A DNA stretch of 64,000 nt from contig JAGAQG010000063.1 in assembly GCA_017622875.1 (NCBI GenBank), forward strand, positions 1 to 64,000, given 5' to 3'. The notes under the pieces were generated by a model. That model was not told the origin of the DNA. It saw only the letters and a program-made list of their open reading frames with translations, and searched no databases. How positions within the stretch are numbered: position 1 is the first letter of the stretch; each line of letters starts with the position of its first letter. The position numbers were made by a program, and so were the translations under genes. Shown here in pieces: positions 35,120 to 49,464 of the stretch. This DNA is from Lachnospiraceae bacterium. GTDB lineage: Bacteria > Bacillota > Clostridia > Lachnospirales > Lachnospiraceae.

Positions 35120-35141
35120 AAGTGCCAGGAGGATATGGAAC

Positions 35142-36386
35142 ATGAATTTATTCGAGCCGGCAGATATTTTGATCCCGGAGAATGTGGAAATGGAAAAATG
35201 GTCTGTCATTGCTTGCGACCAGTTTACGTCTCAGCCGGAATATTGGGAAAGAGTGGAAAGCTATGTGGGAGAAGCCCCATCTTCCTTAAAACTGATTTTG
35301 CCGGAAGCAAAGCTTGGAGAAGATTCGGCAGGTATGATCGCTGAAATCAGGAAGACCATGGAAACGTATTTGAAGCAGAATCTGTTCAGAGAGTATCAAA
35401 ATACTTTTGTTTATGTGGAGAGAACGCTTTTGGATGGAACCATCCGTAAAGGAATCGTAGGAGCAATCAATCTGGAAGAATATGATTATTCTCCCCATTC
35501 GTTGTCAGGCATTCGCGCAACAGAAAAAACAGTGATTGAGAGAATTCCGCCGCGCAAGATCATTCGTGAAAATGCAGTGCTGGAACTGCCGCACATTTTA
35601 CTGTTTTCCGATGACGAGAAGGACATTATGTGCGGATATCTGGAGACGATTAAGGAAAAGCTTCCATTATTATATGATTTTGATTTAATGGAAGAGGGTG
35701 GACATATTTCCGGCAGACTGATAGCAGGGAATGAAGTTGAGAAATTTTTAGAAAAGCTGGAATCCTATGGAGATTTTATCCAGGAGAAATATGCAGATTC
35801 AAAGAAAGTGCCGATGATGTTTGCTGTGGCAGATGGAAACCATTCCCTTGCGACAGCAAAAGCCTGCTATGAGGATATAAAACTGAAGAATCAGGGAAGG
35901 GATTTGTCAAATCACCCGGCGAAGTATGCTTTGGTGGAAGTGGTAAACATTCATGATGAAGCTCAGAAATTTGAGCCAATCCATCGAATTGTAAAAAATG
36001 TAGACGTAAATGCAATCTTAGGAGCATTGATCCTGGATTCCTGCGCAGAAGAAGGGTATCCGGTAAAATGGTATAGCGGCGAAAAGCATGGAACTGTATT
36101 TTTAGACCCGGCGAAAGGCCAGCTTCCAATCGGAATCCTGCAGAATTTTCTGGATGAATATTTGTCCGTGCATTTGGGTGTGGTCGATTATATCCATGGC
36201 GGAAACGTTTTAAAGGAGTTATCGAAGGAAACAAACTGTATCGGGTTTGAGCTTCCTGCAATTGATAAGGATAAATTTTTCAAAGGAATCATTGAAGAGG
36301 GCGTTTTTCCAAGAAAAACCTTTTCTACAGGTCATGCACAGGAAAAACGATATTATCTGGAAGCAAGAAAAATTATTAATGAATAA
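35142..36386 (+). CDS. DUF1015 family protein
   Basis: The 414-residue soluble protein has the DUF1015 hallmarks: NLFEPADILIPENVEMEKWS at the start, VIACDQFTSQPEYW near 28-41, and the central MFAVADGNHSLATAKACYE (about residue 226). The family is conserved in many anaerobes, often near serine/phosphoglycerate metabolism, but has no proven activity. The ATG at 35142 lies nine bases after AGGAGG; a second ATG at 35135 is in another frame. It ends before a strong terminator. Confidence 0.85.
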   Translation: MNLFEPADILIPENVEMEKWSVIACDQFTSQPEYWERVESYVGEAPSSLKLILPEAKLGEDSAGMIAEIRKTMETYLKQNLFREYQNTFVYVERTLLDGTIRKGIVGAINLEEYDYSPHSLSGIRATEKTVIERIPPRKIIRENAVLELPHILLFSDDEKDIMCGYLETIKEKLPLLYDFDLMEEGGHISGRLIAGNEVEKFLEKLESYGDFIQEKYADSKKVPMMFAVADGNHSLATAKACYEDIKLKNQGRDLSNHPAKYALVEVVNIHDEAQKFEPIHRIVKNVDVNAILGALILDSCAEEGYPVKWYSGEKHGTVFLDPAKGQLPIGILQNFLDEYLSVHLGVVDYIHGGNVLKELSKETNCIGFELPAIDKDKFFKGIIEEGVFPRKTFSTGHAQEKRYYLEARKIINE

Positions 36387-36414
36387 AGCCGGAACATTTA
36401 GTAAAGAAAAGCGA

Positions 36415-36443
36415 AAAAGTCCTTGAATTTCAAGGACTTTTAC
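36415..36443 (+). terminator. Terminator after the DUF1015 gene, overlapping the next promoter
   Basis: AAAAGTCCTTG-AATTT-CAAGGACTTTT is a perfect 11-base stem. The possible -35 of the next operon (TTGAAT, 36423-36428) sits inside its top. Confidence 0.85.
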
Positions 36444-36517
36444 TATATAATATCAAATTGTGCATTGAATGAATATTTATGCATAAATATATGAATATTT
36501 TAATGAATATTCATTGA
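36423..36517 (+). promoter_or_regulatory. Promoter with ARG-box-like operators of the amino acid ABC operon
   Basis: TTGAAT (36423-36428), a 17-base spacer and TATAAT (36446-36451) make a promoter. Downstream, AATGAATATTTATGCATA (36468-36485) fits the ArgR consensus core TGnATwwwwATnCA. TAATGAATATTCATTGA (about 36501-36517) is a weaker relative. Their position after the start suggests ArgR repression. The ArgR gene is not in the window. Confidence 0.55.
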
Positions 36518-36549
36518 AAAATAAATTTAATATAAAAGGAGAATGAGTT

Positions 36550-37347
36550 ATGAAGAAGAAATTATTATCACTCATGTTAGTAGCAGCTATGGCTCTTGCA
36601 GCAGTAGCTTGTGGATCTAAAGAAGAAACAGCAGAAGCTCCGGCAGCTGCAGAAGAAGCTACAGAAGAAGCAGAAGCACCAGCTGACAAAGCTGTATTAG
36701 TAATGGCAACAAACGCTGAATTCCCTCCATATGAATACTATGAAGGCGGCGAAATCGTTGGTATCGATGCTGAAATCGCTGCAGCAGTTGCAGAAAAATT
36801 AGGCTGCGAACTTGTAATCGAAGATATGGCATTTGACTCTATCATCGCAGCAGTTACATCAGGAAAAGCTGATTTTGGTTTAGCAGGTATGACAGTTACA
36901 GAAGACCGTTTACAGAGCGTAAACTTCTCTGATACTTATGCACACGCTACACAGGTAGTTATCGTTGCAGAGGGTTCTGATATCACAGGCGTTGCAGACT
37001 TAGATGGCAGAAAAGTTGGTGTTCAGTTAGGAACAACAGGTGACATCTATGCAGAAGATATCACAGACGTAACAATCGAACGTTACAACAAAGGTTTCGA
37101 AGCTGTTCAGGCACTTTCTCAGGGCAAGATCGATGCAGTGATCATCGACAACGAGCCTGCAAAAGTATTCGTAGCTGAAAACGAAGGCCTTGTACTTCTT
37201 GATGAAGCATTCACAGAAGAAGATTATGCTATGGCAATTGCAAAAGACAACACAGACTTACTTGAAAAAGTAAACACAGCACTTGCTGAATTAACAGAAG
37301 ACGGAACATTACAGGCAATCGTAGACAAATACATCGCAGCTGAATAA
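36550..37347 (+). CDS. Polar amino acid ABC transporter substrate-binding lipoprotein
   Basis: The 265-residue lipoprotein has a signal peptide ending AVACGSK (lipid Cys about 21) and an acidic Ala/Glu-rich linker (residues 25-46). An SBP_bac_3 domain follows: TNAEFPPYEYYEGGEIVGID, the GKADFGLAGMTVTEDR ligand segment, and VGVQLGTTGD. This family binds Arg, Lys, His, Gln or cystine. The ARG-box-like sites in front point to arginine, as for ArgR-controlled artP-type operons in Firmicutes. That choice is inference. Confidence 0.9.
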   Translation: MKKKLLSLMLVAAMALAAVACGSKEETAEAPAAAEEATEEAEAPADKAVLVMATNAEFPPYEYYEGGEIVGIDAEIAAAVAEKLGCELVIEDMAFDSIIAAVTSGKADFGLAGMTVTEDRLQSVNFSDTYAHATQVVIVAEGSDITGVADLDGRKVGVQLGTTGDIYAEDITDVTIERYNKGFEAVQALSQGKIDAVIIDNEPAKVFVAENEGLVLLDEAFTEEDYAMAIAKDNTDLLEKVNTALAELTEDGTLQAIVDKYIAAE

Positions 37348-37364
37348 GAATAGGAAATCAAATC

Positions 37365-38099
37365 ATGGGATTTTTTCAGAATCTGGCTGACAGATTTTAT
37401 TTGAACTTTATCGCGGATGAACGCTGGCATTATGTGACAGACGGTCTGAAGGCAACACTGATCATTACTTTTTTTGCATTGATCATCGGTGTTGTTTTGG
37501 GATTTCTTCTTGCGCTGATCCGTTCAACCTACGACAGAACCGGCAAAAAATTCTTAAAGTGGGAAAGCATTGGTGATTTCCTGCTCTGGATTCTTAACAT
37601 TTTTGCAAAAGTTTATCTGACGATCATCAGAGGAACACCAGTTGTTGTACAGCTGCTCATTATTTACTTTGTCATTTTTGGAAGTGTCAACATTGAGAAA
37701 GTAGTCGTAGCTGTGCTTGCCTTTGGTTTAAACTCTGCGGCTTATGTTGCAGAAATCTTCCGAAGCGGTATCATGTCTATCGATATTGGACAGACAGAAG
37801 CAGGACGAAGCCTTGGTTTTAACTACTGGCAGACCATGTGGTACATCATTCTGCCACAGGCATTTAAGAATGTATTGCCAACATTAGGTAATGAATTTAT
37901 TGTACTTTTAAAAGAAACATCAGTATCCGGTTATATCGCACTGCAGGATTTGACAAAGGGCGGCGACATTATCCGAAGCCGTACATATGATGCGTTTTTT
38001 CCATTGATCGCAGTAGCAATCATTTACCTTGTGATGGTCATGATCTTTACAAAACTGGTATCCATGCTTGAAAGGAGGTTACAGCAGAGTGAGCGATAG
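37365..38099 (+). CDS. Polar amino acid ABC transporter permease
   Basis: The 244-residue membrane protein has five predicted helices and the His/Glu/Gln/Arg/opine family permease domain. The EAA loop is [25 protein letters not shown], in which Glu-Ala-Gly-Arg contacts the ATPase. It is slightly longer than usual, with about 35 extra residues before the first helix. It lies 17 bases after the binding protein gene, and its end overlaps the ATPase gene by 11 bases. Two copies would form the channel of the importer. Confidence 0.92.
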
Positions 38100-38832
38100 T
38101 GTAAAACCTTTAATTAAAGCAGTGGGCGTTCAGAAGAGCTTTGGTAATCTGGACGTATTAAAAGGAATTGACCTTGATATTTACAAAGGTGATGTGGTCG
38201 TTATCATTGGACCGTCAGGTTCTGGTAAAAGTACCTTTTTGCGATGCTTAAACCTTTTGGAAGAGCCAACAGGCGGACAGATCATTTTTGAAGGTACAGA
38301 CATTACCGGTAAAAAGGTAAATATTGATAAACACCGTCAGAAAATGGGAATGGTGTTCCAGCACTTTAATTTATTCCCGCACATGACAATTTTAAAGAAC
38401 ATGACCATTGGACCGATCAAGTTAAAGGGAATGTCAAAAGAAGAAGCAGAAGAGAAAGCAATGAAACTTTTGGAACGCGTTGGTCTGGCTGACAGAGCAG
38501 ATGCTTATCCTAGCCAGTTATCCGGCGGTCAGAAACAGCGAATTGCAATCGTTCGTGCCCTGTGTATGGAACCGGAGGTTCTGCTTTTTGATGAACCGAC
38601 TTCAGCCCTTGACCCGGAAATGGTTGGTGAAGTTCTTCAGGTAATGAAAGATCTTGCAAAAGAAAATATGACCATGGTCGTGGTAACACACGAAATGGGA
38701 TTTGCAAAAGAAGTTGCAAACCGTGTCATTTTCATTGATGAAGGTATCATTCAGGAAGAAAATGAACCGAAGGAATTCTTTGAACATCCGAAAAATGAAC
38801 GATTAAAAGGATTCTTAAGCAAGGTTTTATAA
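38089..38832 (+). CDS. Polar amino acid ABC transporter ATP-binding protein
   Basis: The 247-residue ATPase has Walker [15 protein letters not shown] near residue 37, Q-loop [12 protein letters not shown], signature LSGGQKQR, Walker [15 protein letters not shown], and the His switch VVTHEMGFA. This is the GlnQ/ArtM-type set for amino acid importers. I choose the GTG at 38089, ten bases after AGGAGG; an in-frame TTG at 38068 lies before that ribosome site. It completes the binding protein-permease-ATPase trio and is followed by a terminator. Confidence 0.93.
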
Positions 38833-38842
38833 GGAATTTAGT

Positions 38843-38878
38843 GGGCAGATCCGGATAGGGTCTGCTCTTTACATTTTT
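38843..38878 (+). terminator. Terminator after the amino acid ABC operon
   Basis: GGGCAGATCC and GGGTCTGCTC pair over ten positions with two G-U pairs around GGATA, followed by a T-rich stretch. Confidence 0.75.
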
Positions 38879-38913
38879 TCTTCTTTTACCGAACTGTTTG
38901 GGAATTTTCTTAC

Positions 38914-38941
38914 AAAAGAAGAATCAATTTTCTTTTATAAT
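38914..38941 (+). promoter_or_regulatory. Promoter region of the PTS operon with inverted repeat
   Basis: TATAAT lies at 38936-38941 with no good -35. AAAAGAA (38914-38920) and TTCTTTT (38930-38936) form an inverted repeat overlapping the spacer. It could be the site of the PRD regulator encoded in the operon. Confidence 0.4.
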
Positions 38942-38979
38942 GGACAAGGTAAAAAAATCTTAACATAGGAGGAATTAGT

Positions 38980-40239
38980 ATGAACAAAATTCAAGCATGG
39001 CTTCAGAAATGGCTGATGCCAATCGCAACAGCACTGGAAAATCAGAGACATCTCCAGGCAATCAAAGATGGTATCGTTGGTATCGTTCCAATTATTATCA
39101 TCGGTTCATTCTGCCTTGTACCGACTGGTATCGGAAACCTGATCGGCGGCGGAGTACAGGAATGGGTAAATGCACATAACAGCATCATCACTTTTCCTAC
39201 TTATTTTACAACTAATATCATGTCATTGTATGCAGTATTGTATATTGCAAACTCTCTGGCAAAAAGTTACGACATTAAGAATGTACTGGTAGGTGCATCT
39301 GCAATCTTAGTACATTTACTTCTTTCTGTAACAATTACAGAAGAAGGTGCATGGACAGTCAGCTACCTTGGTGCAGAAGGTCTTTTCGTAGCAATGATCT
39401 CTGCAATCCTCGCAGTAGAAGTAATGAGACTGTGCAGCAAACATAACCTGACAATTAAAATGCCTGACAGCGTACCACCAATGGTAGCAGACAGTTTTTC
39501 TATTTTAATTCCATTAGTAATCGATGTAGTAATCGCAACAGCAATCGCTACATTATGCCAGAACCTTGGCGGAACAACATTCCCACAGGTAATCATGAAC
39601 ATTCTTGCTCCAGCAATCTCCTCTATGGATTCTCTGCCAGCAGTTATGATCGTAATCTTTATCACACAGCTTCTGTGGGTATTCGGTCTTCATGGTGCAG
39701 CAATCACATCCAGTGTATGGGCTCCATTTGCCATCGCAAACGCTACAGCAAACGCAGCAGCAGTAGCAGCAGGAGCAGATCCTACACATGTATTTACATT
39801 TGGATTCTACTATGGATTCTTACAGGTAAGTGGTTCTGGTATGACACTTGGTCTTGTTATCATGATGATGCTTTCCAAAGCAAAATCCTTAAAGACCATC
39901 GGTCGTGTAGGTATTATCCCATCTCTGTTCGGTGTTAACGAACCGATTATTTTCGGTGCTCCAATCATTATGAACCCATTCTTAATGATTCCATTCGTAT
40001 TTGGACCAGTAATCGTAGCAGCAATCGATTATCTTGCAATGGCATCCGGATTAGTAGGACTTCCACTTTGGGAAGCACCAGGTTTCCTGCCACCAGGATT
40101 CCAGGCATTCCTTTTAACATTAGACTGGAAGGCTGCTGTACTTGCAATCTTTAACGTTGTTTTAATGACAATCTTCTACTATCCATTCTTCAAGATGATG
40201 GAAGCAGACGAACTTAAGAAAGAAGCTGCAAATTCATAG
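38980..40239 (+). CDS. PTS transporter subunit IIC, lactose/cellobiose family
   Basis: The 419-residue membrane protein has about ten helices and lacks fused IIA or IIB domains. The substrate-site segment GVNEPIIFGAPIIMNP (about 315-330) and LLWVFGLHGAAI are signatures of the Lac family EIIC. It translocates a sugar or sugar-like compound while IIB phosphorylates it. The cognate IIB and IIA lie 2.4-3 kb downstream in the same operon. No phospho-glycosidase is encoded here, so the substrate is probably not an ordinary disaccharide; a nucleoside phosphorylase lies in its place. Confidence 0.9.
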   Translation: MNKIQAWLQKWLMPIATALENQRHLQAIKDGIVGIVPIIIIGSFCLVPTGIGNLIGGGVQEWVNAHNSIITFPTYFTTNIMSLYAVLYIANSLAKSYDIKNVLVGASAILVHLLLSVTITEEGAWTVSYLGAEGLFVAMISAILAVEVMRLCSKHNLTIKMPDSVPPMVADSFSILIPLVIDVVIATAIATLCQNLGGTTFPQVIMNILAPAISSMDSLPAVMIVIFITQLLWVFGLHGAAITSSVWAPFAIANATANAAAVAAGADPTHVFTFGFYYGFLQVSGSGMTLGLVIMMMLSKAKSLKTIGRVGIIPSLFGVNEPIIFGAPIIMNPFLMIPFVFGPVIVAAIDYLAMASGLVGLPLWEAPGFLPPGFQAFLLTLDWKAAVLAIFNVVLMTIFYYPFFKMMEADELKKEAANS

Positions 40240-40301
40240 AAGAAGTTTCTGGAATTGAATATGAGCTTATGATATACTTGACAGCAGAGGGGGAGTTTCT
40301 T

Positions 40302-41789
40302 TTGCTGTCAAGTCGTCAAAAAACAATTATTCTGTATGTATTAGGACATCCGGAGGGTGTTTCCGGGAAAAAGCTTTCTGAACATTTTCATGCCAGTGAA
40401 AAAACCATCAGAAAAGATCTTTCGATGGCAAATCAGTGGTTAAGATCGGAAGGCTTTGAGATTCGTGCGTCTCAAAGAAATGGATATTACATCGCTGGAG
40501 AAAACCGCGGCCGAATCAACGATCTTTTGGAGGAACAGTGTTATTTCGTAAAAGGAATGGAAAGCCAGACGCCTTTAGAGCGCAGACTTTCTGTGATGGA
40601 TCGTGCGCTTGGAAGGCCGGGAAGTAGTCTGGATGTGATTGCAGAGTACCTGCACGTGCCTGAAAATACAATCTATAAAGATATCTCTTATATGGAAAAG
40701 TTGTTTGAGGAGGAATACGGACTTCCGGGAATGGTGGTGCAAAATCATCAGATCTATATGAAAGCCGGAGAGAAAGAAATCCGAAAACTTGTGTTTCGAA
40801 TCATCGAAGGCTGTATCGTAACAAACGGGCAGTTGATGGATAATTCTCTGTATCACCTGATGCGCGGCATTGTAAACTTAAAAGAGATTAATACCTTCTA
40901 TCAATATGTCGTAGAGTTCTGTAAGGAGAGGAAAATCGTGGTCTCCGATCAGGTGCTCTATATGGCAGCCTGGAAGATATTTTATGTAAATGTCCGAAGA
41001 GAAGAAACACATTTCATGGAAGATTCAGAATGGATTTTCAGACAAGATCAGTTGGCAGATTTTCTGCAATACATGAATCAGACGCTGTTTCTGGAGATGG
41101 AAGACTGCGATCTGGAATTTATATATCAGGAATTAGAAAGAATCGGATTTCCGACCGGAAAAGACGAGACAGATGAAAAACTCAGAGAGCTGCTTGACGG
41201 ATTTTATCATCAGGTCAATGAAAAATACCAGATTTCCTTTGACGAGAATGCAGAGCTGAAAGCAGATTTTGAAAAGGATGTAGCATGTCTGGTAAAAAGA
41301 ATCCTGTCAGACAGTCAGATTTCCAGAATTCCGGGTACGAAGAGTGTAATTTCCGGATCCGATGAGGAAAATGAAATTCCAAAACAGGCAGTTGGCATTC
41401 TGACAGATATGCTTTTTAATGAATACGGAAAAAAAGTAAATAGTTTCGAAACGGAAAGACTTTTGGAATATATCCACGCAGTAGGATGGAAAACGGAAAC
41501 AGAACTTCATGTTCTGGTGATTTATGGTGCTGATAAGGGTTGGTATCATCGTGTATGCCGCTGGATTGGAGAAAAGTTCAGAGGTATTGTACAGATTTGC
41601 GGTGCATGTCCATTGTATCTTTTGGAGGATGAGTGCATCAAAGTAAAACCGGATCTGGTAATCACACCACAGACCATGGATGTTCAATTCCAGATCCCAC
41701 AGCTCGTTTTTTCGGGAGTTCCATCAGAGACAGAGGAACGAAGAGTTTATACCTTCTTAGAAGGAATTATGAAAAATAAGAATCATTGA
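40302..41789 (+). CDS. PRD-containing transcriptional regulator (BglG/MtlR-like)
   Basis: The 495-residue protein has two N-terminal helix-turn-helix units (GKKLSEHFHASEKTIRKDL and LDVIAEYLHVPENTIYKDIS). PRD-like helical regions run about 150-370, with histidines that PTS proteins could phosphorylate. A C-terminal IIB-like Rossmann segment follows from about 400 (LHVLVIYGADKGWYHRV). It probably senses PTS activity and controls this operon. I choose the TTG at 40302 because AGAGGGGGAG lies seven bases upstream; an ATG at 40269 in the same frame has no ribosome site. It sits 62 bases after the IIC gene. Confidence 0.82.
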   Translation: MLSSRQKTIILYVLGHPEGVSGKKLSEHFHASEKTIRKDLSMANQWLRSEGFEIRASQRNGYYIAGENRGRINDLLEEQCYFVKGMESQTPLERRLSVMDRALGRPGSSLDVIAEYLHVPENTIYKDISYMEKLFEEEYGLPGMVVQNHQIYMKAGEKEIRKLVFRIIEGCIVTNGQLMDNSLYHLMRGIVNLKEINTFYQYVVEFCKERKIVVSDQVLYMAAWKIFYVNVRREETHFMEDSEWIFRQDQLADFLQYMNQTLFLEMEDCDLEFIYQELERIGFPTGKDETDEKLRELLDGFYHQVNEKYQISFDENAELKADFEKDVACLVKRILSDSQISRIPGTKSVISGSDEENEIPKQAVGILTDMLFNEYGKKVNSFETERLLEYIHAVGWKTETELHVLVIYGADKGWYHRVCRWIGEKFRGIVQICGACPLYLLEDECIKVKPDLVITPQTMDVQFQIPQLVFSGVPSETEERRVYTFLEGIMKNKNH

Positions 41790-41815
41790 TCAGTGTAATG
41801 CTAAATGGAGGTTGT

Positions 41816-42550
41816 ATGGCGACAATACATAACGAGGCTGCTTTAGAGGAGATCGCGCAGGTAGTTCTGATGCCGGGAGATCCTCAGAGAGCAAAGCTGA
41901 TCGCTGAAAACTATCTGGAAGATGCCAGATTATTTAATCAGGTTCGCGGAATGTACGGATATACCGGCTGGTATCAGGGAGAGCGGATTTCAGTCATGGG
42001 AAGCGGCATGGGCGCACCTTCCATGGGGATTTATTCCCATGAGCTATTTCGCAAATATGATGTCAATACGATCATTCGTATAGGGTCCTGCGGAGCATTC
42101 TCAGAAGAAATATCCATGAGAGAGATTCTTCTGGTGGAAAGCTCCTGGAGTGAGTCAACTTTCGCAAGAACCTATGACGGAGATGAAAACGATACACAGT
42201 ACGCATCTGCCTTGCTGAATCAGGAAATTCTGAATGCTGCAAAGATATGCGGAAAAGAATTAAAGCCTGCAAAGGTTCATTCGACGGACTGTTTTTATCG
42301 AATGGACAAGGAGGCGAACTTTAAGATCCGTGACCGCTATGGATGTGTTGCGGAAGAGATGGAAAGCTTTGCGCTTTTCCATATTGCACAGGCAGCCGGA
42401 AAACATGCGGCGACTCTGTTAACGGTAAGCGATCATTCGATCACTCATGAAAAGCTTTCTTCCGAAGAACGTAGACGCTCTTTTGAAGATATGATGGAAA
42501 TCGCACTTTATGCGGCGGCACAGAGAACAAAAAAATTAAAAGAAAAATAA
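41816..42550 (+). CDS. deoD: Purine-nucleoside phosphorylase (DeoD family)
   Basis: The 244-residue phosphorylase cleaves nucleosides with phosphate to base and (deoxy)ribose-1-phosphate. DeoD motifs are VLMPGDPQRAKLIAENYL near residue 14, GSGMGAPSMGIYSHELF, IIRIGSCGAF, the ribose-binding EEMESFALF and the catalytic-Asp segment LTVSDHSITHE. Length is canonical for the hexameric trimer-of-dimers type. The ATG at 41816 follows GGAGG. It lies inside a PTS operon, between the regulator and IIB, which is unusual and suggests that the transported compound is nucleoside-related. That link is inference. Confidence 0.9.
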   Translation: MATIHNEAALEEIAQVVLMPGDPQRAKLIAENYLEDARLFNQVRGMYGYTGWYQGERISVMGSGMGAPSMGIYSHELFRKYDVNTIIRIGSCGAFSEEISMREILLVESSWSESTFARTYDGDENDTQYASALLNQEILNAAKICGKELKPAKVHSTDCFYRMDKEANFKIRDRYGCVAEEMESFALFHIAQAAGKHAATLLTVSDHSITHEKLSSEERRRSFEDMMEIALYAAAQRTKKLKEK

Positions 42551-42600
42551 AATATTTTTTTTTGCGCCGCCAGGGGCGAAGTGCGGAAAGGAGTTTCATA

Positions 42601-42897
42601 ATGAAAATTTTATTATGTTGTAATGCTGGAATGTCAAGTTCAATTCTGGTAAAAAAGATTCGCGAAGCTGCTGAAAAGAGAGGCATGGAAATTACGATCC
42701 AGGCAGTTGCAAATGCGGGAATCAAAGACGAAGTTGGTAAATGGGATGTTTGTCTCGTAGGACCGCAGCTGATGTATGCAGTTTCAAACATCAAATCACA
42801 GTTAAATATTCCGGTTGCAAGCATTGAACCACGTACTTATGCGCTGGCAGATGGCGACAAAGCGCTTGATTTTGCAATCAGTTTAATTAAAGGCTAG
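42601..42897 (+). CDS. PTS subunit IIB, lactose/cellobiose family
   Basis: The 98-residue soluble protein starts MKILLCCNAGMSSSILV, in which Cys7 before the NAGMSSS loop is the phosphorylated residue of Lac-family IIB. The rest is a Rossmann-like fold of typical length. It takes phosphate from IIA and passes it to the substrate carried by IIC. The ATG at 42601 follows AAAGGAG; the frame extends upstream without a start signal. IIA begins nine bases later. Confidence 0.92.
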   Translation: MKILLCCNAGMSSSILVKKIREAAEKRGMEITIQAVANAGIKDEVGKWDVCLVGPQLMYAVSNIKSQLNIPVASIEPRTYALADGDKALDFAISLIKG

Positions 42898-42906
42898 GAA
42901 ATTATT

Positions 42907-43230
42907 ATGGCAGATATCAGTAAGATCACTGAAACAGCGATGATCCTCATCACTTATTCAGGGATGGCAAAGTCCTGTTATATGGAAGCAATGGCTTTGG
43001 CTAAACAGGGAAAATTTGAGGAAGCGGACGCAAAGATCACAGAAGGTGACGGATATTTTGTGGAAGCGCATCATGGACATGGAGAGCTTCTTCAGGAAGA
43101 AATGTCTACAGAAGAATCTCAGGCAAGTCTTTTGATGACACATGCAGAAGATCAGTTGATGGGAGCAGAATCTTTAAAGATCGTAATCCTGGAACTGATC
43201 GATATTTATAAAAAATTGGAGGAAAACTAA
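42907..43230 (+). CDS. PTS subunit IIA, lactose/cellobiose family
   Basis: The 107-residue helical protein has the Lac-family IIA layout. The acceptor histidine lies in FVEAHHGHGELLQEE (about residues 57-60), and the metal-coordinating aspartate segment is MTHAEDQLMGAE near residue 80. It forms a trimer and carries phosphate from HPr to IIB. Position and length agree with LacF/CelC types. The next gene starts two bases after its stop, so that protein is co-produced with the PTS. Confidence 0.92.
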   Translation: MADISKITETAMILITYSGMAKSCYMEAMALAKQGKFEEADAKITEGDGYFVEAHHGHGELLQEEMSTEESQASLLMTHAEDQLMGAESLKIVILELIDIYKKLEEN

Positions 43231-43231
43231 A

Positions 43232-43837
43232 ATGGCAGCATTTAATATTTGGGCAGCATCAAAAACACTGAACGGATTTGCAACAGATGAAATCGTATCC
43301 TGCCTGCAGAAATCTATCCGCAGAGCAATGGTAGAGGAAGCATGTCAGTATGCTTACGAATTATATGTTTCAGGTCCTGTTTATCTGGAAAAAATGTGGA
43401 GAAGATTACTTACAATTTCTGTAGAAGATATCGGATTTGGTAATCTGGACGCAGCAGTACAGTTAAATGCACTGAACGAAATGCGCAAAAACTTCCCATA
43501 TGATGATGGGGATCAGCCAATGTATTTTATTCATGCAATCCGTATCCTCTGTGCAAGCACAAAGGACCGTTCCAGCGATTATCTGAAAAATATCATTATC
43601 AAAGAAGCTGCCATGGGTAAATTACCTGAAATCATGGATGTAGCACTGGATAAACATACAGTCAGAGGCCAGGAAATGGGAAGAGGTTCCAAACATTTCT
43701 TTGAGGAAGCTACAAAGGTAATTCCACAGCTTGAAATTGATAATGACTACAGAGAACGTTACGGAAAGATTCTGGAAACTTATTCTCCGGATAAAAATGT
43801 AGAAAATGCATTTAAATATAATACAGGACAGTATTAA
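43232..43837 (+). CDS. Free-standing RarA/MgsA C-terminal-domain-like protein
   Basis: The 201-residue helical protein lacks any AAA+ ATPase motifs but resembles the C-terminal tetramerisation region of RarA/MgsA (replication-associated recombination protein A). The stretch TDEIVSCLQKSIRR followed by MWRRLLTISVEDIGFGN (about 20-75) matches the HKSIRGS...RRLxRxxxEDIGLAD pattern of that domain. It lies between PTS IIA (two-base gap, GGAGG ribosome site) and an FAD dehydrogenase. No function for such a solo domain in a PTS operon is known to me. It could be a structural or regulatory partner of the neighbouring enzymes. Confidence 0.7.
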   Translation: MAAFNIWAASKTLNGFATDEIVSCLQKSIRRAMVEEACQYAYELYVSGPVYLEKMWRRLLTISVEDIGFGNLDAAVQLNALNEMRKNFPYDDGDQPMYFIHAIRILCASTKDRSSDYLKNIIIKEAAMGKLPEIMDVALDKHTVRGQEMGRGSKHFFEEATKVIPQLEIDNDYRERYGKILETYSPDKNVENAFKYNTGQY

Positions 43838-43860
43838 TTGTCGGAAAGCGGGGTAGCTAT

Positions 43861-45228
43861 ATGAACTATGATGTGATTATTATTGGCGCAGGGCCAGGAG
43901 GGATTTTTTCAGCATATGAGCTGATTAAAAAAAATCCGGAATTAAAGATCGGGGTATTTGAAGCAGGAAATGCACTGGAAAACAGAAAATGTCCGATTGA
44001 CGGGGACAAGGTAAAATCCTGTATCAAATGTAAGACTTGTGCGATTATGAGCGGCTTTGGCGGTGCAGGTGCCTTTTCTGATGGAAAGTATAATATTACC
44101 AACGATTTTGGTGGTACACTGCATGAACATATTGGTCGTGCCAAATCATTGGAACTGATGAGATATGTAGATGACATCAATGTTGCATATGGCGGAGAAA
44201 AGACCCGTATGTTTTCTACAGCAGGTACAAAATTTAAAAAGATCTGTATTCAGAACAAATTAAAGCTTCTGGATGCATCTGTTCGTCATCTGGGAACCGA
44301 TATTAACTATGTTGTTCTGGAAAATCTTTATGCCGAACTGAAAGAAAAAATGGATTTCTATTTCAGAACTCCGGTTGAAAAGATTGAGATCGTTGATGGA
44401 AAATACAGAGTCTTCTATAAGGATGAATATTCAGACTGCGATAAATGTATCGTTTCTGTCGGAAGAATCGGAAGCAAGTGGATGGAAAAAGTTTGTAATG
44501 AACTGGACATCCCGACAAAATCAAACCGTGTAGACATCGGTGTGCGTGTAGAGCTTCCTGCAGTTGTTTTCTCACATCTGACAGATGAACTTTATGAAAG
44601 TAAGATCGTTTACCGCACAGAAAAATTTGAAGATAATGTACGTACTTTCTGTATGAACCCAAATGGTGCAGTTGTAAATGAAAATACCAACGGAATCGTA
44701 ACTGTAAACGGACACAGCTACGAAGATCCTGCACAGCATACTGAAAATACAAACTTTGCACTTCTTGTTGCAAAACATTTTTCAGAACCGTTCAAAGACA
44801 GTAACGGATACGGTGAAAGTATCGCAAGACTTTCCAACATGCTTGGTGGAGGAGTTATTGTACAGAGATTCGGTGATCTGGTTCGAGGACGAAGAAGTAC
44901 TGTAAAACGAATCGAAGAAGGACTTGTTACACCGACACTGGCAGCAACACCAGGTGATTTAAGTCTTGTACTTCCAAAACGAATCCTGGATGGTATTATT
45001 GAAATGATCTATGCACTGGATAAAATTGCTCCAGGTACTGCAAATGATGATACGCTGCTTTATGGTGTAGAAGTAAAATTCTACAATATGGAAGTAGATA
45101 TTGATGAAAATCTGGAAACAAAATATCCGGGATTGTATGTCATCGGTGATGGAAGTGGTGTAACACATTCACTTTCTCATGCTTCTGCAAGTGGTGTTTA
45201 TGTAGCAAGAAGAATTTTAGAAAATTAA
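43861..45228 (+). CDS. FAD-dependent dehydrogenase (COG2509-like)
   Basis: The 455-residue flavoprotein has the FAD loop VIIIGAGPGGIFSAYEL at residues 5-21. A cysteine-rich patch CPIDGDKVKSCIKCKTCAIM (about 40-60) may hold an iron-sulfur cluster or zinc. The segment SGFGGAGAFSDGKYN follows, and the C-terminal FAD motif is GLYVIGDGSGVTHSLSHA. It is shorter than many COG2509 members because their N-terminal extension is missing. The substrate is unknown. It belongs to the PTS-phosphorylase operon, 23 bases after the RarA-C-like gene, and is followed after three bases by an AraC regulator. Confidence 0.85.
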   Translation: MNYDVIIIGAGPGGIFSAYELIKKNPELKIGVFEAGNALENRKCPIDGDKVKSCIKCKTCAIMSGFGGAGAFSDGKYNITNDFGGTLHEHIGRAKSLELMRYVDDINVAYGGEKTRMFSTAGTKFKKICIQNKLKLLDASVRHLGTDINYVVLENLYAELKEKMDFYFRTPVEKIEIVDGKYRVFYKDEYSDCDKCIVSVGRIGSKWMEKVCNELDIPTKSNRVDIGVRVELPAVVFSHLTDELYESKIVYRTEKFEDNVRTFCMNPNGAVVNENTNGIVTVNGHSYEDPAQHTENTNFALLVAKHFSEPFKDSNGYGESIARLSNMLGGGVIVQRFGDLVRGRRSTVKRIEEGLVTPTLAATPGDLSLVLPKRILDGIIEMIYALDKIAPGTANDDTLLYGVEVKFYNMEVDIDENLETKYPGLYVIGDGSGVTHSLSHASASGVYVARRILEN

Positions 45229-45231
45229 TTT

Positions 45232-46203
45232 ATGAATGAAGAACTGTTAAAGAAGCTTCGCCCGATCACGGAAGAAGAACGGAAAATTTTAGAAGAGCGA
45301 AAGGAAATTCAGAAGGAGATTTATACAGCTTCCGAAGAATTTACCATCGACAGTCGAAAAATGCTGGAAAAAGGACGTTTGATCGACATTCGAACTCACA
45401 CAAGGTTTATTCCGTTCCCGCAGCATCGGCATAATTTCATCGAAATTCTATATATGTGTGAGGGCCATACTTTTCACAGAATTGATGGAAATACAGAGAT
45501 TGAGTTAAAGGCAGGGGAGCTTCTTTTCCTGAATCAGTTATCTTATCAGGAAATTGCAGAGGCTGGAGAAAATGACATTGGAATCAATTTCATGATCCAG
45601 CCTCAATTTTTTGATCAGGTTTTGCCAATGCTGGAAAAGGGAAATGAGCTATCAGAATTTATTCTGCAGGGACTGCGTCAGAAAGGAGATGGCCCGAACT
45701 ATCTTCATTATCAGGTAGCGGATATTCTTCCTGTCCAGAATCTGGTGGAAAATCTGGTATGGAATCTGATCTATCGACCGAAAAATCATCGTCAGATGAA
45801 TCAGACCACCATGGGAATCCTGTTCATGATGCTTGCAAATCATACGGATAAGCTTGCTCAATACAATACAGATGTATATCAGGATGTGTTTGCTCCGGAA
45901 ATCCTCAAATACGTGGAAGAAGAGTATAAGACAGCAACATTAGAGGAATTGGCTGCAGAAATGAATGTGGCATTGTCCACTATGAGCAAAATTGTAAAAA
46001 AAAGTACTGGAATGACTTTCAAAGAGCTGTTAAAACAGCAGCGCCTTCTTCGTGCTACAAATCTTTTAGAGCATACAAAATTGCCGATTACAGATATCAT
46101 TGAAATGGTCGGATATGATAATACAAGTTATTTTCACCGCATTTTTAGAGAAGCCTATCAGATGAGCCCAAAACAATATAGAGATTGGAAAATAAGGACG
46201 TAA
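45232..46203 (+). CDS. AraC family transcriptional regulator with cupin sensor domain
   Basis: The 323-residue regulator has an N-terminal cupin sensor (about 55-140, with FPQHRHNFIEILYMCEGHTF and the LKAGELLFLNQ strand) and a C-terminal AraC double helix-turn-helix from about 222 (ATLEELAAEMNVALSTMSKIV, then ITDIIEMVGYDNTSYFHRIF). It starts three bases after the FAD dehydrogenase with no clear ribosome site, so translation is probably coupled. It could control the upstream PTS operon or rhaA just downstream. A terminator separates it from rhaA. Confidence 0.88.
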   Translation: MNEELLKKLRPITEEERKILEERKEIQKEIYTASEEFTIDSRKMLEKGRLIDIRTHTRFIPFPQHRHNFIEILYMCEGHTFHRIDGNTEIELKAGELLFLNQLSYQEIAEAGENDIGINFMIQPQFFDQVLPMLEKGNELSEFILQGLRQKGDGPNYLHYQVADILPVQNLVENLVWNLIYRPKNHRQMNQTTMGILFMMLANHTDKLAQYNTDVYQDVFAPEILKYVEEEYKTATLEELAAEMNVALSTMSKIVKKSTGMTFKELLKQQRLLRATNLLEHTKLPITDIIEMVGYDNTSYFHRIFREAYQMSPKQYRDWKIRT

Positions 46204-46231
46204 AATTAGTAAATTTGCGTCCTTGTTTTAT
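46194..46231 (+). terminator. Terminator after the PTS/AraC operon
   Basis: AAGGACGTAAA and AATTTGCGTCCTT pair around a short AT-rich loop, then GTTTTAT. The stem includes the AraC stop codon. Confidence 0.75.
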
Positions 46232-46310
46232 GCTTGGGGCTTGTATATAATACAATTAACAAAGCAATAGTGCTTAAATGAATCGTGATATTCTTAAGGG
46301 GGTAATTACA

Positions 46311-47579
46311 ATGTACGATGTAAAAAAAGGCTATGAATTAGCAAAAGAGTTCTACGCACAGTACGGAATCGACGTAGACAAAGCAATCGAAATCGCAGAC
46401 TCTACACCAATTTCTATGCATTGCTGGCAGGGGGATGACGTTGGCGGATTAGAATGTAAAGAAGATAAATCTTTATCAGGTGGTATCCAGACAACAGGTA
46501 ACTACCCAGGTAAAGCTACAACAGGTGCTGAACTTCGTGCAGATATCGAAGAAGCTATGAAACATATCCCAGGTGAATTAAAAGTTAATGTTCATGCAAA
46601 CTACTCTGAATCAGACGTATTTGTAGACCGTAACGAAATTGAACCAAAACATTTCCAGAAATGGGTTGACTGGGCAGTAGAAAAAGGATTAGGACTCGAC
46701 TTTAACCCTACATACTTTGCTCATCCATTAAGCACAGATAAGGGAACACTTTCCTGTGCAGATGAAAATGTACGTAAATTCTGGGTTGAACATGGTATCA
46801 GATGCCGTCAGATTGGTCAGTACTTTGCAGAAAAAACAGGTAAAACTTGTGTAATCAACCACTGGACACCAGACGGAGATAAAGAAGTACCAGTTGATAC
46901 ATTAGCTCCAAGATTAAGATTAAAACAGTCTTATGATGAAATCTTTGAAGCTACAAAAGACGTTACAGGCGTTATGGATGGTATTGAATCTAAAGTATTC
47001 GGTATCGGTGCAGAAAGCTACACAGTAGGTTCTCATGAATTCTGTATGGGATATGTAATGAGAGCAAACAAAGACCACATCATCATGACACTTGATAATG
47101 GTCATTATCATCCAACAGAAACAGTTTCTAATAAACTTTCAGGAGTTTACGCATTTGACAAACACGTATTACTTCATGTAACGCGTGCAGTTCGTTGGGA
47201 CTCTGACCACGTAGTAGGTATGGATGACGAAACAAAAGCAATCTTTGAAGAACTTGTACGTATGGGTAAATTACAGGATACTTACGTAGCAACAGACTTC
47301 TTTGATGCTTCCATCAACCGTATTGCTGCATGGGTAATCGGTATGAGAAATACAAGAAAAGCAATGCTTGCTGCATTATTACAGCCAAATGACAAGATGA
47401 AAGAAATCGAAGCTTCAGGTGATGTTACAGCAAGACTTGCATGGAAAGAAGAATTTAAAGCAGCTCCATTCTCACTCGTATGGGATTACTATTGCGAACA
47501 GAAAGGCATTAAGAAAGGCCTTGAATGGTTACTAGAAGTAAAAGCTTATGAAGAAAAAATCCTTGCTGAAAGAGCATAA
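46311..47579 (+). CDS. rhaA: L-rhamnose isomerase
   Basis: The 422-residue TIM-barrel enzyme converts L-rhamnose to L-rhamnulose. RhaA hallmarks are ISMHCWQGDDVGGLE near residue 33, VNVHANYSESD, GLDFNPTYFAHPLS, VINHWTPDGDKEVP and the metal-ligand region MTLDNGHYHPTETVS. Length is canonical. The ATG at 46311 follows AAGGGGG; an upstream in-frame ATG at 46278 precedes that ribosome site and is unlikely. A TATAAT-like box is at about 46246. rhaB (kinase) and rhaD (aldolase) are not adjacent. The rest of the rhamnose genes follow after a two-component system. Confidence 0.96.
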   Translation: MYDVKKGYELAKEFYAQYGIDVDKAIEIADSTPISMHCWQGDDVGGLECKEDKSLSGGIQTTGNYPGKATTGAELRADIEEAMKHIPGELKVNVHANYSESDVFVDRNEIEPKHFQKWVDWAVEKGLGLDFNPTYFAHPLSTDKGTLSCADENVRKFWVEHGIRCRQIGQYFAEKTGKTCVINHWTPDGDKEVPVDTLAPRLRLKQSYDEIFEATKDVTGVMDGIESKVFGIGAESYTVGSHEFCMGYVMRANKDHIIMTLDNGHYHPTETVSNKLSGVYAFDKHVLLHVTRAVRWDSDHVVGMDDETKAIFEELVRMGKLQDTYVATDFFDASINRIAAWVIGMRNTRKAMLAALLQPNDKMKEIEASGDVTARLAWKEEFKAAPFSLVWDYYCEQKGIKKGLEWLLEVKAYEEKILAERA

Positions 47580-47594
47580 AATGATATCCAAATA

Positions 47595-47630
47595 AAAAAG
47601 GTCTGTCCGAAAGGACAGATCTTTTTTTGC
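47595..47630. terminator. Bidirectional terminator between rhaA and the sensor kinase
   Basis: AAAAAGGTCTGTCC-GAAA-GGACAGATCTTTTTTT is a strong GNRA-loop hairpin with A and T tracts between convergent genes. Confidence 0.92.
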
Positions 47631-47635
47631 TATGG

Positions 47636-49462
47636 TCATATCTCATCTTCAGATTCATGAATGACTACAGGAATACGGATTTCAACTTCTGTTCCGATGC
47701 CCAGAGTGCTTCGGTAGGTAAGACCAAAATCCTGGTTATCATAATAAAGCTGGAGTCTGCGGTGTGTGTTATAAATACCGATATTGCTTCCAGATTCACT
47801 TTTTCCATCTCCGGAAAGGATTTTATCCATCTGTTCCTGTGGAATGCCGACTCCGTCATCCGATACAACGAAAACGATATCTCTGCCTTCCAGCCAGGCC
47901 ATGATAACAATACTTCCAGCTTTGGACTCTTTCCCAAGAATCCCATGAAGAATGGCATTTTCAACGATTGGCTGTAAAACAAGCTTTGGTATTTCGCAGT
48001 CCAGAATTTCATCCGGAACATCAATTAAGAAATCAATCTTATTTTCAAAACGCATATTTTGAAGTTTCACATAAAGGGATACATGATTTAATTCTTCTGC
48101 AACGGTCGTAGTAACTTCTTTTTTACTTAAGGTCAGCTTGTAAAATTTGGAAAGTGACTGTACGGCAATGGATACTTCCTCGGACTTTCCGCTTTTAGAA
48201 AGCCAGTTGATCATATCCAGCATATTATAAAGAAAATGCGGATTGATTTGCGCCTGTAAAGCACGGTATTCAGCGATTCGAAGTTCTTCTGCAGAGTGCT
48301 TCTGCTGTTCCATCAGGTTTCCGAGCTCGTCAGCCATGTAATTATAGGTGGTAATTAAATCCCCGATTTCATCACGGTCATCTGTTTCCGGCAGCTTTTC
48401 CGGGGTGGTTAAATGGGAGCCAAGACGTACGGTTCTCATCTGATTAATGACACTGGAAATCCTGCGGGTAATATTGCTGGTGGTAACCATCGGCATAATG
48501 CAGGAAATAATTAGCAAAAAAACTGAAAGCAGCAGGAATTGTCTTAACAGATTATTCTGCTCTGAGTAGACCTGACTTGCAGGGACAACAGATACCAGGT
48601 ACCAGTCTGTCTCATCAATGCTTCGATAACCCATATACATTTCCTGTTCTACAAGCACACGGGATACGAATTCCTTTTGGGTGGGAATGGTGTTTGGAAT
48701 ATCTTCATAACGCATGAAATATAAGCCCGCCAAAGATGCATTGCTATAGGAAACAAAGGATTGACGGCTGTTAATGATGTAGGCAACGCTGTCCTCTGTT
48801 CTGGAATTCTCTTTTAATATTTTCTCAAAAAGAGAAGACGAAAAATAGACTGCAATATAGGAATTTGTCCCGGCGTATTCTACGCGCTGGATAAATGCCA
48901 GGTCACCATTATTTTTAATCTCATTGGAAGAGAGATAAAACTCAGGACAAAACAGCTTTGTCATGTCTGAGGAACTGAAAATTCCATACCAGTAGGAGCC
49001 CTCTGCTTCAGAAATAGGCAGAAAGATACGGCTGTCAGGATAATCTTCCAGCAGCTTATATTTTGATTCCTCTACATAGATTTTAATATCTTTTATATGA
49101 TTTTCGCCTTCTGTACTATAGAGATAAGAAAAGAAGGCGGTGGCATCCGGAGCGTAGTCCGGGGTGTTGCGATAGGTTGTAAATCTGGTAGAACGCAGCG
49201 TATTAATATAGAAGTCCTGCTCCTTGATATTATCGGGAATCGCAGTGATTTTCGAAACAAGGGCCGTAATATTGGTATCCATCTGGTCAATTAATGATTC
49301 CTCTGTACGGATTGTATTGGAAATCAATACATCTGAAATCTGCGTAAAGAGAAAGTATGCAATCAAAAGCATTGGAATCAATACGAAAAAGATATGAGAA
49401 AGCATTAATTTCGTTTTCAGTTTAATATTTCTATTAAAGTTGTGAAGTAAGTTGCGTTTCAA
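47636..49462 (-). CDS. Sensor histidine kinase (YesM family)
   Basis: The 608-residue kinase has a first membrane helix (about 19-40), a large extracellular sensor region (about 45-300), a second helix (about 308-330) and a HAMP linker. A His_kinase domain follows with QAQINPHFLYNMLDMINWLS, in which the histidine is phosphorylated, and a GHKL ATPase with VVSDDGVGIP and SNIGIYNTHRRL. YesM kinases control carbohydrate uptake genes with YesN-type regulators. The partner gene is two bases upstream on the same strand. The adjacent CUT2 importer is the likely target. Confidence 0.92.
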   Translation of the reverse strand: MKRNLLHNFNRNIKLKTKLMLSHIFFVLIPMLLIAYFLFTQISDVLISNTIRTEESLIDQMDTNITALVSKITAIPDNIKEQDFYINTLRSTRFTTYRNTPDYAPDATAFFSYLYSTEGENHIKDIKIYVEESKYKLLEDYPDSRIFLPISEAEGSYWYGIFSSSDMTKLFCPEFYLSSNEIKNNGDLAFIQRVEYAGTNSYIAVYFSSSLFEKILKENSRTEDSVAYIINSRQSFVSYSNASLAGLYFMRYEDIPNTIPTQKEFVSRVLVEQEMYMGYRSIDETDWYLVSVVPASQVYSEQNNLLRQFLLLSVFLLIISCIMPMVTTSNITRRISSVINQMRTVRLGSHLTTPEKLPETDDRDEIGDLITTYNYMADELGNLMEQQKHSAEELRIAEYRALQAQINPHFLYNMLDMINWLSKSGKSEEVSIAVQSLSKFYKLTLSKKEVTTTVAEELNHVSLYVKLQNMRFENKIDFLIDVPDEILDCEIPKLVLQPIVENAILHGILGKESKAGSIVIMAWLEGRDIVFVVSDDGVGIPQEQMDKILSGDGKSESGSNIGIYNTHRRLQLYYDNQDFGLTYRSTLGIGTEVEIRIPVVIHESEDEI

Positions 49463-49464
49463 TT

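What the first reader, a model, noticed from the sequence alone, without database searches (positions are those of the whole stretch)
38980..45228. Undescribed-looking PTS system: Lac-family IIC/IIB/IIA with purine nucleoside phosphorylase, RarA-C-like protein and FAD dehydrogenase
Lac-family PTS operons usually carry a phospho-glycosidase. Here its place is taken by a DeoD phosphorylase, and the operon adds a solo RarA/MgsA C-terminal-like protein and a cysteine-rich FAD dehydrogenase, all tightly spaced with a PRD regulator. A PTS for a nucleoside or ribosylated compound, or a coupled uptake-phosphorolysis-redox pathway, would be new to my knowledge.
Basis: partly seen in the sequence, partly recalled or inferred. 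Interest (0 to 1): 0.78.

Follow-up and report, generated by a model that had tools for sequence, protein, structure and literature searches.

The report
Sugar-importer operon with nucleoside-cleaving enzyme
A gut-type bacterium carries a sugar-type import system wired to an enzyme that splits nucleosides and to a small unstudied protein that follows one branch of these importers across several bacterial phyla, which hints that some bacteria may eat nucleoside-like compounds by a route not yet described.

Summary
The genes are there: Lac-family IIC, HTH regulator (no PRD found), DeoD-type PNP, IIB, IIA, a 201-aa RarA C-terminal-domain homologue ("RarC") and an FAD protein, one strand, tightly packed. 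Among mapped loci the exact order is unique, but the system is widespread. RarC lies within 6.5 kb of a same-strand Lac-family IIC in 73 of 80 named loci (four phyla). In 395 Lactobacillales genomes RarC and its IIC clade occur in 42 each, 41 shared, 21-371 bp apart. RarC-adjacent IICs group together. One branch carries a GlvA-like 6-phospho-alpha-glucosidase (GH4), another a distinct PNP clade (window plus eight genomes; four with phosphopentomutase). The window is a mosaic: IIC and PNP resemble the PNP branch; IIB, IIA, RarC, FAD the GH4 branch. Distant RarCs sit with nucleoside importers (7 of 19 Erysipelotrichales loci) or pentose genes; 9 of 19 do not. Best reading: uptake and phosphorolysis of a purine-nucleoside-like compound; PTS phosphorylation of the nucleoside is inferred from clade-specific basic residues in the PNP. 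The GH4 branch argues for ordinary alpha-glucosides. RarC's activity is unknown. Seven paper searches found no description.

The parts
38843..38867 (+). terminator-like hairpin upstream of the operon
   Evidence: 10-pair stem with T-rich tail; consensus match only
38980..40239 (+). PTS IIC, lactose/cellobiose family, 419 aa
   Evidence: TIGR00410 319 bits over cut-off 236; 198.5 bits to the cellobiose-type IIC structure 3qnq; H in GLHG and E in VNEP present
40269..41789 (+). transcription regulator with HTH_11/Mga-type HTH, 506 aa; PRD not detected
41816..42550 (+). DeoD-type purine nucleoside phosphorylase (ORF list start TTG 41786)
   Evidence: NF004489 and TIGR00107 over cut-off; phosphate, ribose and catalytic residues of E. 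coli DeoD kept, V178 replaced by E in the window protein (roles recalled)
42601..42897 (+). PTS IIB, Lac family (ORF list start TTG 42562)
   Evidence: PTS_IIB 63.5/23.6; motif CNAGMS
42907..43230 (+). PTS IIA, Lac family, the only PTS_IIA found in this genome
   Evidence: PTS_IIA 99.4/27; single hit in the genome; His in HAED
43232..43837 (+). RarC: stand-alone homologue of the RarA/MgsA C-terminal domain, 201 aa, no AAA+ match
43861..45228 (+). FAD-binding protein, FAD-depend_C family, with a CPIDG...C..C..C motif kept in 11 of 11 aligned sequences
   Evidence: Pfam PF21688 46.6/27; PDB 3nlc 5.4e-14; orthologues in related loci
45232..46203 (+). AraC-family regulator 3 nt downstream (RhaS-like, before rhaA): probably not part of the system
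   Evidence: RhaA and this regulator were among the queries and no RhaA was listed near RarC

Best explanation
The operon is the PNP branch of a conserved 'RarC-PTS' module. SHOWN (by sequence): a complete Lac-family EII with its expected phosphorylation-site motifs; a DeoD-type PNP with the catalytic residues; RarC tied to this IIC group across phyla; a PNP clade that goes with the PNP-branch IIC. INFERRED: IIC imports a purine-nucleoside-like (ribosylated) compound, EIIB-P phosphorylates its hydroxymethyl group (5'-OH, or an attached sugar), and the dedicated PNP cleaves the N-glycosidic bond by phosphorolysis to base plus pentose phosphate, which phosphopentomutase (in the same gene string in four relatives, elsewhere in this genome) sends into the pentose phosphate pathway. 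RarC is a needed partner that acts on or binds the nucleoside/pentose moiety; its activity is unknown. The FAD protein is an optional accessory.
For: RarC-adjacent IICs group apart from generic LacE proteins (43 rows, SH-aLRT 93). RarC and its IIC clade in 395 Lactobacillales genomes: 42 each, 41 shared, same contig and strand, 21-371 bp. Eight genomes besides the window carry IIC-reg-IIB-IIA-RarC-PNP; in four a YczE-like gene, a second PNP and DeoB follow. PTS-linked PNPs form one clade (12 rows, 9 distinct, 99/97) near the PNPs at nucleoside-ABC/RarC loci (16 rows together, 66/85, weak). Mosaic: window IIC is nearer to all 8 PNP-branch IICs (63.5-67.1%) than to any of 13 GH4-branch IICs (52.2-60.5%), while RarC is the reverse (58.7-63.7% vs 76.1-91.0%; AU p 2e-50), so IIC and PNP seem to have moved together. 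Distant RarCs: BmpA-type nucleoside importer at 7 of 19 Erysipelotrichales loci, with ADP-ribosylglycohydrolase (7 of 7), nucleoside hydrolase (6), NDT (5) and PNP (4); a nucleotide-pyrophosphatase-type gene plus transketolase-like genes at 3 of 19; nucleoside ABC or DeoC/ribokinase at the four non-PTS bacterial loci. PTS-linked PNPs gained H74, K79, K164, K211 (4 basic of 7 clade-specific sites; 7 of 81 in four control clades, Fisher p 0.004, relatedness not corrected), as a phosphorylated substrate might need.
Against: The sister branch of the same PTS carries a GH4 close to solved 6-phospho-alpha-glucosidases, and RarC is common to both, so RarC is not proof of nucleosides. The 45 RpiR-type loci show neither PNP nor a GlvA-like GH4 within 6.5 kb. 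Lac-family IICs are known for disaccharides and glucosides (recalled). DeoD's ribose-site residues (H4, R43) are kept, which suits an unphosphorylated 5'-OH. 9 of the 19 distant RarC loci had no importer or nucleosidase in the fetched flanks, several of them short. In the 27-row tree the IIC grouping of the window is unresolved (held with the PNP branch p-AU 0.34; the best tree had it with the GH4 branch, support 72), and IIB and IIA tests do not decide either.
Confidence: 0.45

Rival explanations
1. An ordinary alpha- or beta-glucoside PTS. The PNP is a neighbour with a general salvage role; the phosphorylated glucoside is split by an enzyme encoded elsewhere or in the missing part of the genome (87.7% complete).
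For: The closest relatives of IIB, IIA and RarC are mostly in operons with a GlvA-like GH4. A GH1 gene exists elsewhere in the genome. Canonical nucleoside genes are present elsewhere.
Against: That GH1 lies beside what look like its own Bgl-type PTS and antiterminator. A particular PNP clade, not just any PNP, recurs with the PNP-branch IIC in nine genomes, and IIC and PNP look as if they moved together.
Confidence: 0.25
2. The PTS takes up a glycosylated nucleoside or ribosylated glucoside: phosphorylation falls on the glucose, GH4 (in its branch) releases glucose 6-phosphate, and PNP with phosphopentomutase handle the nucleoside part.
For: GH4-branch loci also carry PNP and/or DeoB on the same strand in 4 of 14 (L025, L029 with DeoB ahead of IIC, L031, L033) and L045 on the other strand. 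In L019 the gene just before a phage RarC matches phrog_842, a beta-glucosyl-HMC-alpha-glucosyltransferase family, at 4.4e-10, and look-alike genes precede RarC in L018, L020, L021, L185, L195-L197 (read). It would explain why the PNP keeps a normal 5'-OH site.
Against: No direct evidence of such a substrate; the window branch has no glycosidase in the operon; the phage genes may have nothing to do with nucleoside uptake.
Confidence: 0.08
3. RarC is not an enzyme of the pathway but a binding, scaffold or regulatory protein (for example a ligand sensor with the RarA collar fold) that tunes transport or expression. (About RarC's role only; it can hold together with any of the substrate readings.)
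For: Twelve columns, among them S23, K27, R30, R58, E65, D66, K111, D140, H142, G150, are invariant across 12 RarCs and 4 RarAs, so these are not RarC's own inventions. RarA has a tetramerisation domain (passage of PMC6374455; that it is the C-terminal one is recalled) and works as a tetramer (passage of PMC8735627).
Against: 48 invariant positions in 56 sequences from four phyla plus a Gemmatimonadetes MAG are many for a mere scaffold; in the 45 RpiR-type loci it is, of the genes queried, the only one beside IIC and the regulator that recurs.
Confidence: 0.35

Closest known systems
Lactose/cellobiose-family PTS operons (lacE/celB/chbC type)
   Same: IIC, separate IIB and IIA, phosphorylation-site motifs, an HTH regulator in the operon
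   Different: a nucleoside phosphorylase in place of a phospho-glycosidase, and the RarC partner protein
Deo nucleoside catabolism (deoD, deoB, deoC; E. coli deoCABD)
   Same: DeoD-type PNP, and DeoB in the gene string of four relatives
   Different: coupled to a PTS instead of Nup-type symporters or ABC importers; the PNP is a separate clade with extra basic residues
RarA/MgsA/WRNIP1 AAA+ ATPases
   Same: homologous to the C-terminal domain
   Different: no AAA+ ATPase domain, metabolic context; the genome has its own RarA at C59
BmpA/NupABC nucleoside ABC importer loci with PNP and nucleoside hydrolase
   Same: carry a RarC relative, and PNPs near the PTS-linked PNP clade
   Different: ABC import without phosphorylation instead of PTS

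Membership tests
Lactose/cellobiose-family PTS (EII-Lac) | IIC over the lacE subfamily cut-off | tested here: met
   TIGR00410 319 vs 236 bits
Lactose/cellobiose-family PTS (EII-Lac) | separate IIB and IIA of the Lac type with phospho-acceptor Cys and His | tested here: met
   Pfam PTS_IIB and PTS_IIA over cut-off; CNAGMS and HAED motifs (roles recalled); below the narrower NCBIfam cut-offs TIGR00853 and TIGR00823
Lactose/cellobiose-family PTS (EII-Lac) | PEP-dependent phosphorylation of a glycoside during uptake | not testable with these tools
   needs a transport/phosphorylation assay
Lactose/cellobiose-family PTS (EII-Lac) | cognate phospho-glycosidase in the operon (usual, not strict) | tested here: not met
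   PNP in its place; only a distant GH4 and a separately clustered GH1 found in the genome
DeoD purine nucleoside phosphorylase | subfamily cut-off and active-site residues | tested here: met
   269.8 vs 230 bits; H4, G20, R24, R43, R87, S90, D204, R217 kept (residue roles recalled)
DeoD purine nucleoside phosphorylase | phosphorolysis of purine nucleosides | not testable with these tools
   V178E in the base pocket and clade-specific lysines may change the substrate
RarA/MgsA AAA+ ATPase | AAA+ ATPase domain | tested here: not met
   201 aa, no AAA match in Pfam
RarA/MgsA AAA+ ATPase | MgsA_C domain over the Pfam cut-off | tested here: not met
   18.5 vs 27 bits; homology supported by 2r9g 3.3e-9 and hhalign 1.4e-13
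PRD-containing PTS regulators | PRD domain | tested here: not met
   HTH matches only, no PRD listed at E<=10
FAD-depend_C (VP0956-like) flavoproteins | Pfam PF21688 over cut-off | tested here: met
   46.6 vs 27 bits; the CPIDG...C..C..C motif is not in the part of 3nlc aligned

The most novel reading that the evidence does not exclude
A nucleoside-translocating PTS: PEP-dependent group translocation turns an imported nucleoside into its 5'-phosphate, which a specialised PNP clade (new basic residues H74, K79, K164, K211) cleaves directly, while RarC, a stand-alone derivative of the RarA collar domain, is a new protein family (possibly an enzyme) of nucleoside and pentose metabolism shared by PTS, ABC and phage settings. 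The boldest form is that the GH4 branch feeds on glucosylated nucleosides such as those from glucosylated phage DNA.
Probability: 0.25. Interest if true: 0.85.

Novelty: new variant of a known kind. Interest (0 to 1): 0.6.

Why it matters
If the PTS takes nucleosides, group translocation would extend to a substrate class for which the searches made here found no described PTS, and would yield nucleotides or pentose phosphates straight from PEP. Independently of that, RarC is a conserved protein that the annotated plasmid records call 'hypothetical protein', bound to one branch of Lac-family IICs across four phyla; a function for it would annotate many loci and might say what the RarA C-terminal domain recognises.

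Tried and rejected
Structure prediction of RarC was switched off, so no fold search was run. Defence-system models: no match for four RarCs. RNA families in 34000-50000: none. RarC as a simple RarA fragment: rejected, since bacterial RarCs score about 201-368 bits against about 28-59 for RarA with the same profile (the tandem L017 and the phage relatives are more distant and were not scored with it) and the genome has a separate RarA. RarC-specific catalytic Asp/His: I first took D140/H142 as new to RarC; the alignment with RarA shows DxH in Clostridial RarA too, so this was dropped. A RhaA/rhamnose link: dropped, no RhaA was listed near RarC. A viral scan with the bacterial RarC profile found nothing. 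E. coli genomes hold no match to the Superficieibacter IIC-RarC stretch. Lactobacillus acidophilus isomaltose PTS (passages of PMC3446993): a different PTS, annotated EIIBC. A fully resolved mosaic for IIC: not claimed; the 77-row tree puts the window with the PNP branch (SH-aLRT 94), the 27-row tree leaves it open. The loci that I labelled GH4-branch for searches are 13, of which two (L028, L030) show no GH4. Paper searches without a description of this system: (search listings only, apart from passages of PMC3446993).
Full report
Observation. The window is contig C51 of a 2.74-Mb, 87.7%-complete genome. Searches confirm seven same-strand genes at 38980-45228: Lac-family IIC, an HTH regulator, DeoD-type PNP, IIB, IIA, a 201-aa homologue of the RarA/MgsA C-terminal domain (here 'RarC'; the name is mine) and an FAD-depend_C flavoprotein. 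No PRD domain was found. IIA is the only PTS_IIA found in the genome. A terminator-like hairpin lies before IIC. An AraC gene and L-rhamnose isomerase follow 3 nt after the FAD gene; no RhaA was listed near RarC elsewhere, so I leave them out.

RarC and one branch of Lac-family IIC belong together. A same-strand Lac-family IIC lies within 6.5 kb of RarC in 73 of 80. The seven others: two at contig edges (L023, L037), two beside a divergent PTS operon that holds its own second RarC (L038, L039), two GH4-RarC pairs (L040, L041) and one Gemmatimonadetes locus with none (L101). The loci with IIC cover Bacillota, Actinomycetota, Fusobacteriota and Pseudomonadota (origins also). In 395 Lactobacillales genomes, true RarC occurs in 42 (43 rows; one, at 58.8 bits in a 426-aa frame, I take as RarA and did not examine further) and the matching IIC clade in 42; 41 are shared, on the same contig and strand, 21-371 bp apart (Fisher p about 2e-53, not corrected for relatedness). 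The two exceptions are an IIC whose match is split in two (G980) and a locus with a transposase-like ORF between the IIC and a weakly RpiR-like gene and no RarC match (G1004; the transposase name is read from the sequence). RarC occurs in 51 of 294 Erysipelotrichales and in 3 of 393 genomes searched from the window's class, the window's own included. In 299 genomes of the window's family, 8 had a match: the window, three other genomes with bacterial-type RarC and four in prophage-like settings.

In a tree of 77 IICs, rooted at the midpoint, the IICs paired with RarC of the high-scoring kind, with the window's, fall in one group of 43 rows (SH-aLRT 93; one row labelled 'other' is a second fetch of the L057 gene with short flanks). 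Four rows labelled RarC-linked lie outside it: L084_5994, L088_4503 and L090_6448 are second IICs near RarC in loci whose other IIC is in the group; L165_11207 is a generic PTS one gene away from a RarC of the lower-scoring kind. The group splits into branch A (own regulator, IIB and IIA in most; 100) and branch B (mostly RpiR-type regulator, RarC-IIC; 100).

Branch A alternates between two enzymes. In GH4-type operons a glycosidase close to PDB 6dux and 1u8x (6-phospho-alpha-glucosidase and maltose-6'-phosphate glucosidase; E 3.5e-206 and 2.5e-198; 'GlvA-like' is recalled) precedes IIB or RarC, or follows RarC: 14 of 80 loci with IIC, four more without. In four (L057, L171, L178, L179) a YczE-like gene, a second PNP and DeoB follow; in some of the others the locus ends before that point. 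The PNPs next to RarC in these operons and the window's form one clade (12 rows, 9 distinct, 99/97). The PNPs of RarC loci with a nucleoside ABC importer share its DCFY motif and lie beside it (16 rows, 66/85, weak).

The window is a mosaic. Its IIC is 63.5-67.1% identical to 8 PNP-type IICs (eight genomes) and 52.2-60.5% to 13 IICs of the GH4 branch (two of these loci, L028 and L030, show no GH4); its RarC is 76.1-91.0% identical to 12 GH4-branch RarCs and 58.7-63.7% to 8 PNP-type RarCs; IIB has 51.9-91.8% against 51.0-58.2%, IIA 41.5-75.0% against 43.0-49.5%. The AU test rejects the window RarC with the PNP type (p 2e-50); for IIB, IIA, IIC and the regulator it does not decide. The FAD orthologue (79-81%) follows RarC in L023, L024 (GH4 present) and L030 (no GH4) and lies beside five PNP-type loci (71-73%). 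So transporter and enzyme of one type appear to sit on the phosphotransfer subunits, RarC and FAD gene of the other, which argues that the PNP acts on what the IIC brings in.

What RarC points to. More distant RarCs are mostly not with a PTS: L014 and L015 lie in a BmpA-type nucleoside importer operon (with the glycyl-radical protein YjjI; yjjI lies beside deoCABD in E. coli), L016 and L017 with a sugar ABC importer, DeoC and ribokinase (several of these names read from the sequence). One search listed 22 places of the two lower-scoring groups in Erysipelotrichales; I fetched 19 (three near contig ends left out). Of these 19, 7 adjoin a BmpA-type importer (L154, L155, L157, L158, L159, L160, L162), with an ADP-ribosylglycohydrolase-family gene in 7, IUNH-type nucleoside hydrolase in 6, NDT-like in 5 and PNP in 4 of the 7; 3 (L166-L168) have a nucleotide-pyrophosphatase-type gene (Pfam on L166) and transketolase-like halves (read); 9 show no such set in the fetched flanks, several of which are short (L164 of these has one ADP-ribosylglycohydrolase-like match, L165 the generic PTS). 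In phage loci the gene before RarC matches phrog_842 (beta-glucosyl-HMC-alpha-glucosyltransferase) in the one tested, L019; look-alikes, and PIG-L-, WbqC- and ParB-like genes, recur nearby (PIG-L and ParB read from the sequence). The common thread is nucleosides, pentoses and nucleotides, but it is an association, and the GH4 branch stands against a strict nucleoside role.

The PNP. All DeoD active-site residues checked are kept, except V178E and the variable positions 156 and 206 in the window protein (roles recalled). PTS-linked PNPs share H74, K79, K164 and K211: 4 of 7 clade-specific sites are basic against 7 of 81 in four control clades (Fisher p 0.004; the clades differ in size, 12, 4, 6, 3 and 3 rows, and near-copies are counted). 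This fits a negatively charged, perhaps PTS-phosphorylated, substrate, but no structure was available and H4 and R43 are unchanged.

RarC and RarA. Profile comparison gives E 1.4e-13 over 138 columns. S23, K27, R30, A37, R58, E65, D66, A102, K111, D140, H142 and G150 are invariant across 12 RarCs (bacterial and phage) and 4 Clostridial RarAs; W56, R113 and T143 are in 12 of 12 RarCs and C107 in 11 of 12, and in none of the 4 RarAs. An enzymatic role is therefore open. The genome keeps a full RarA elsewhere.

The rest of the genome. Nup-type ABC genes with a PNP, a cytidine-deaminase-like gene and DeoB lie on C59 and DeoC on C42, so pentose 1-phosphate made by the window PNP could be used. The one GH4 found is 25% identical to the GlvA-like type; the one GH1 gene found lies beside a Bgl-type PTS gene and a LicT-like antiterminator (both read).

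Verdict. That it imports nucleoside-like compounds is the best reading (0.45); the chemistry of uptake and the role of RarC are untested. Paper searches found no description of it.

Noticed in passing
L018-L021, L185, L195-L197: Prophage and phage RarC homologues follow a gene that looks like phage DNA glucosyltransferases (phrog_842 match tested in L019 only) in a variable cassette with PIG-L-, WbqC-, ATP-grasp-, PLP-decarboxylase- and ParB-like genes, which looks like DNA hypermodification.
   Followed up: partly
L017:8931-9926; L031:9379-10600: RarC occurs as a tandem fusion (331 aa, two matching stretches) and as adjacent duplicate genes.
   Followed up: no
L102 (Enterococcus faecium DO plasmid 3): RarC is carried on Enterococcus and Cetobacterium plasmids (12 and 2 records); in E. 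faecium DO an IS110 transposase gene lies between RarC and IIC.
   Followed up: no
L154, L155, L157, L158, L159, L160, L162: Nucleoside-importer loci with RarC also carry a roughly 650-aa ADP-ribosylglycohydrolase-family gene (7 of 7) and often a nucleoside deoxyribosyltransferase-like gene (5 of 7): perhaps ADP-ribose or NAD-derived ribosides are the substrate.
   Followed up: no
L165:7869-9809: In one Erysipelotrichales genome a RarC gene stands directly after a gene that reads like full-length RarA.
   Followed up: no
L024:7313-7948 and others: A YczE-like membrane protein (94.7 bits, below the 205 cut-off) recurs in RarC-PTS operons near GH4 and PNP.
   Followed up: no
window 45232-47579: RhaS-like regulator and L-rhamnose isomerase start 3 nt after the FAD gene with no predicted terminator between.
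   Followed up: partly
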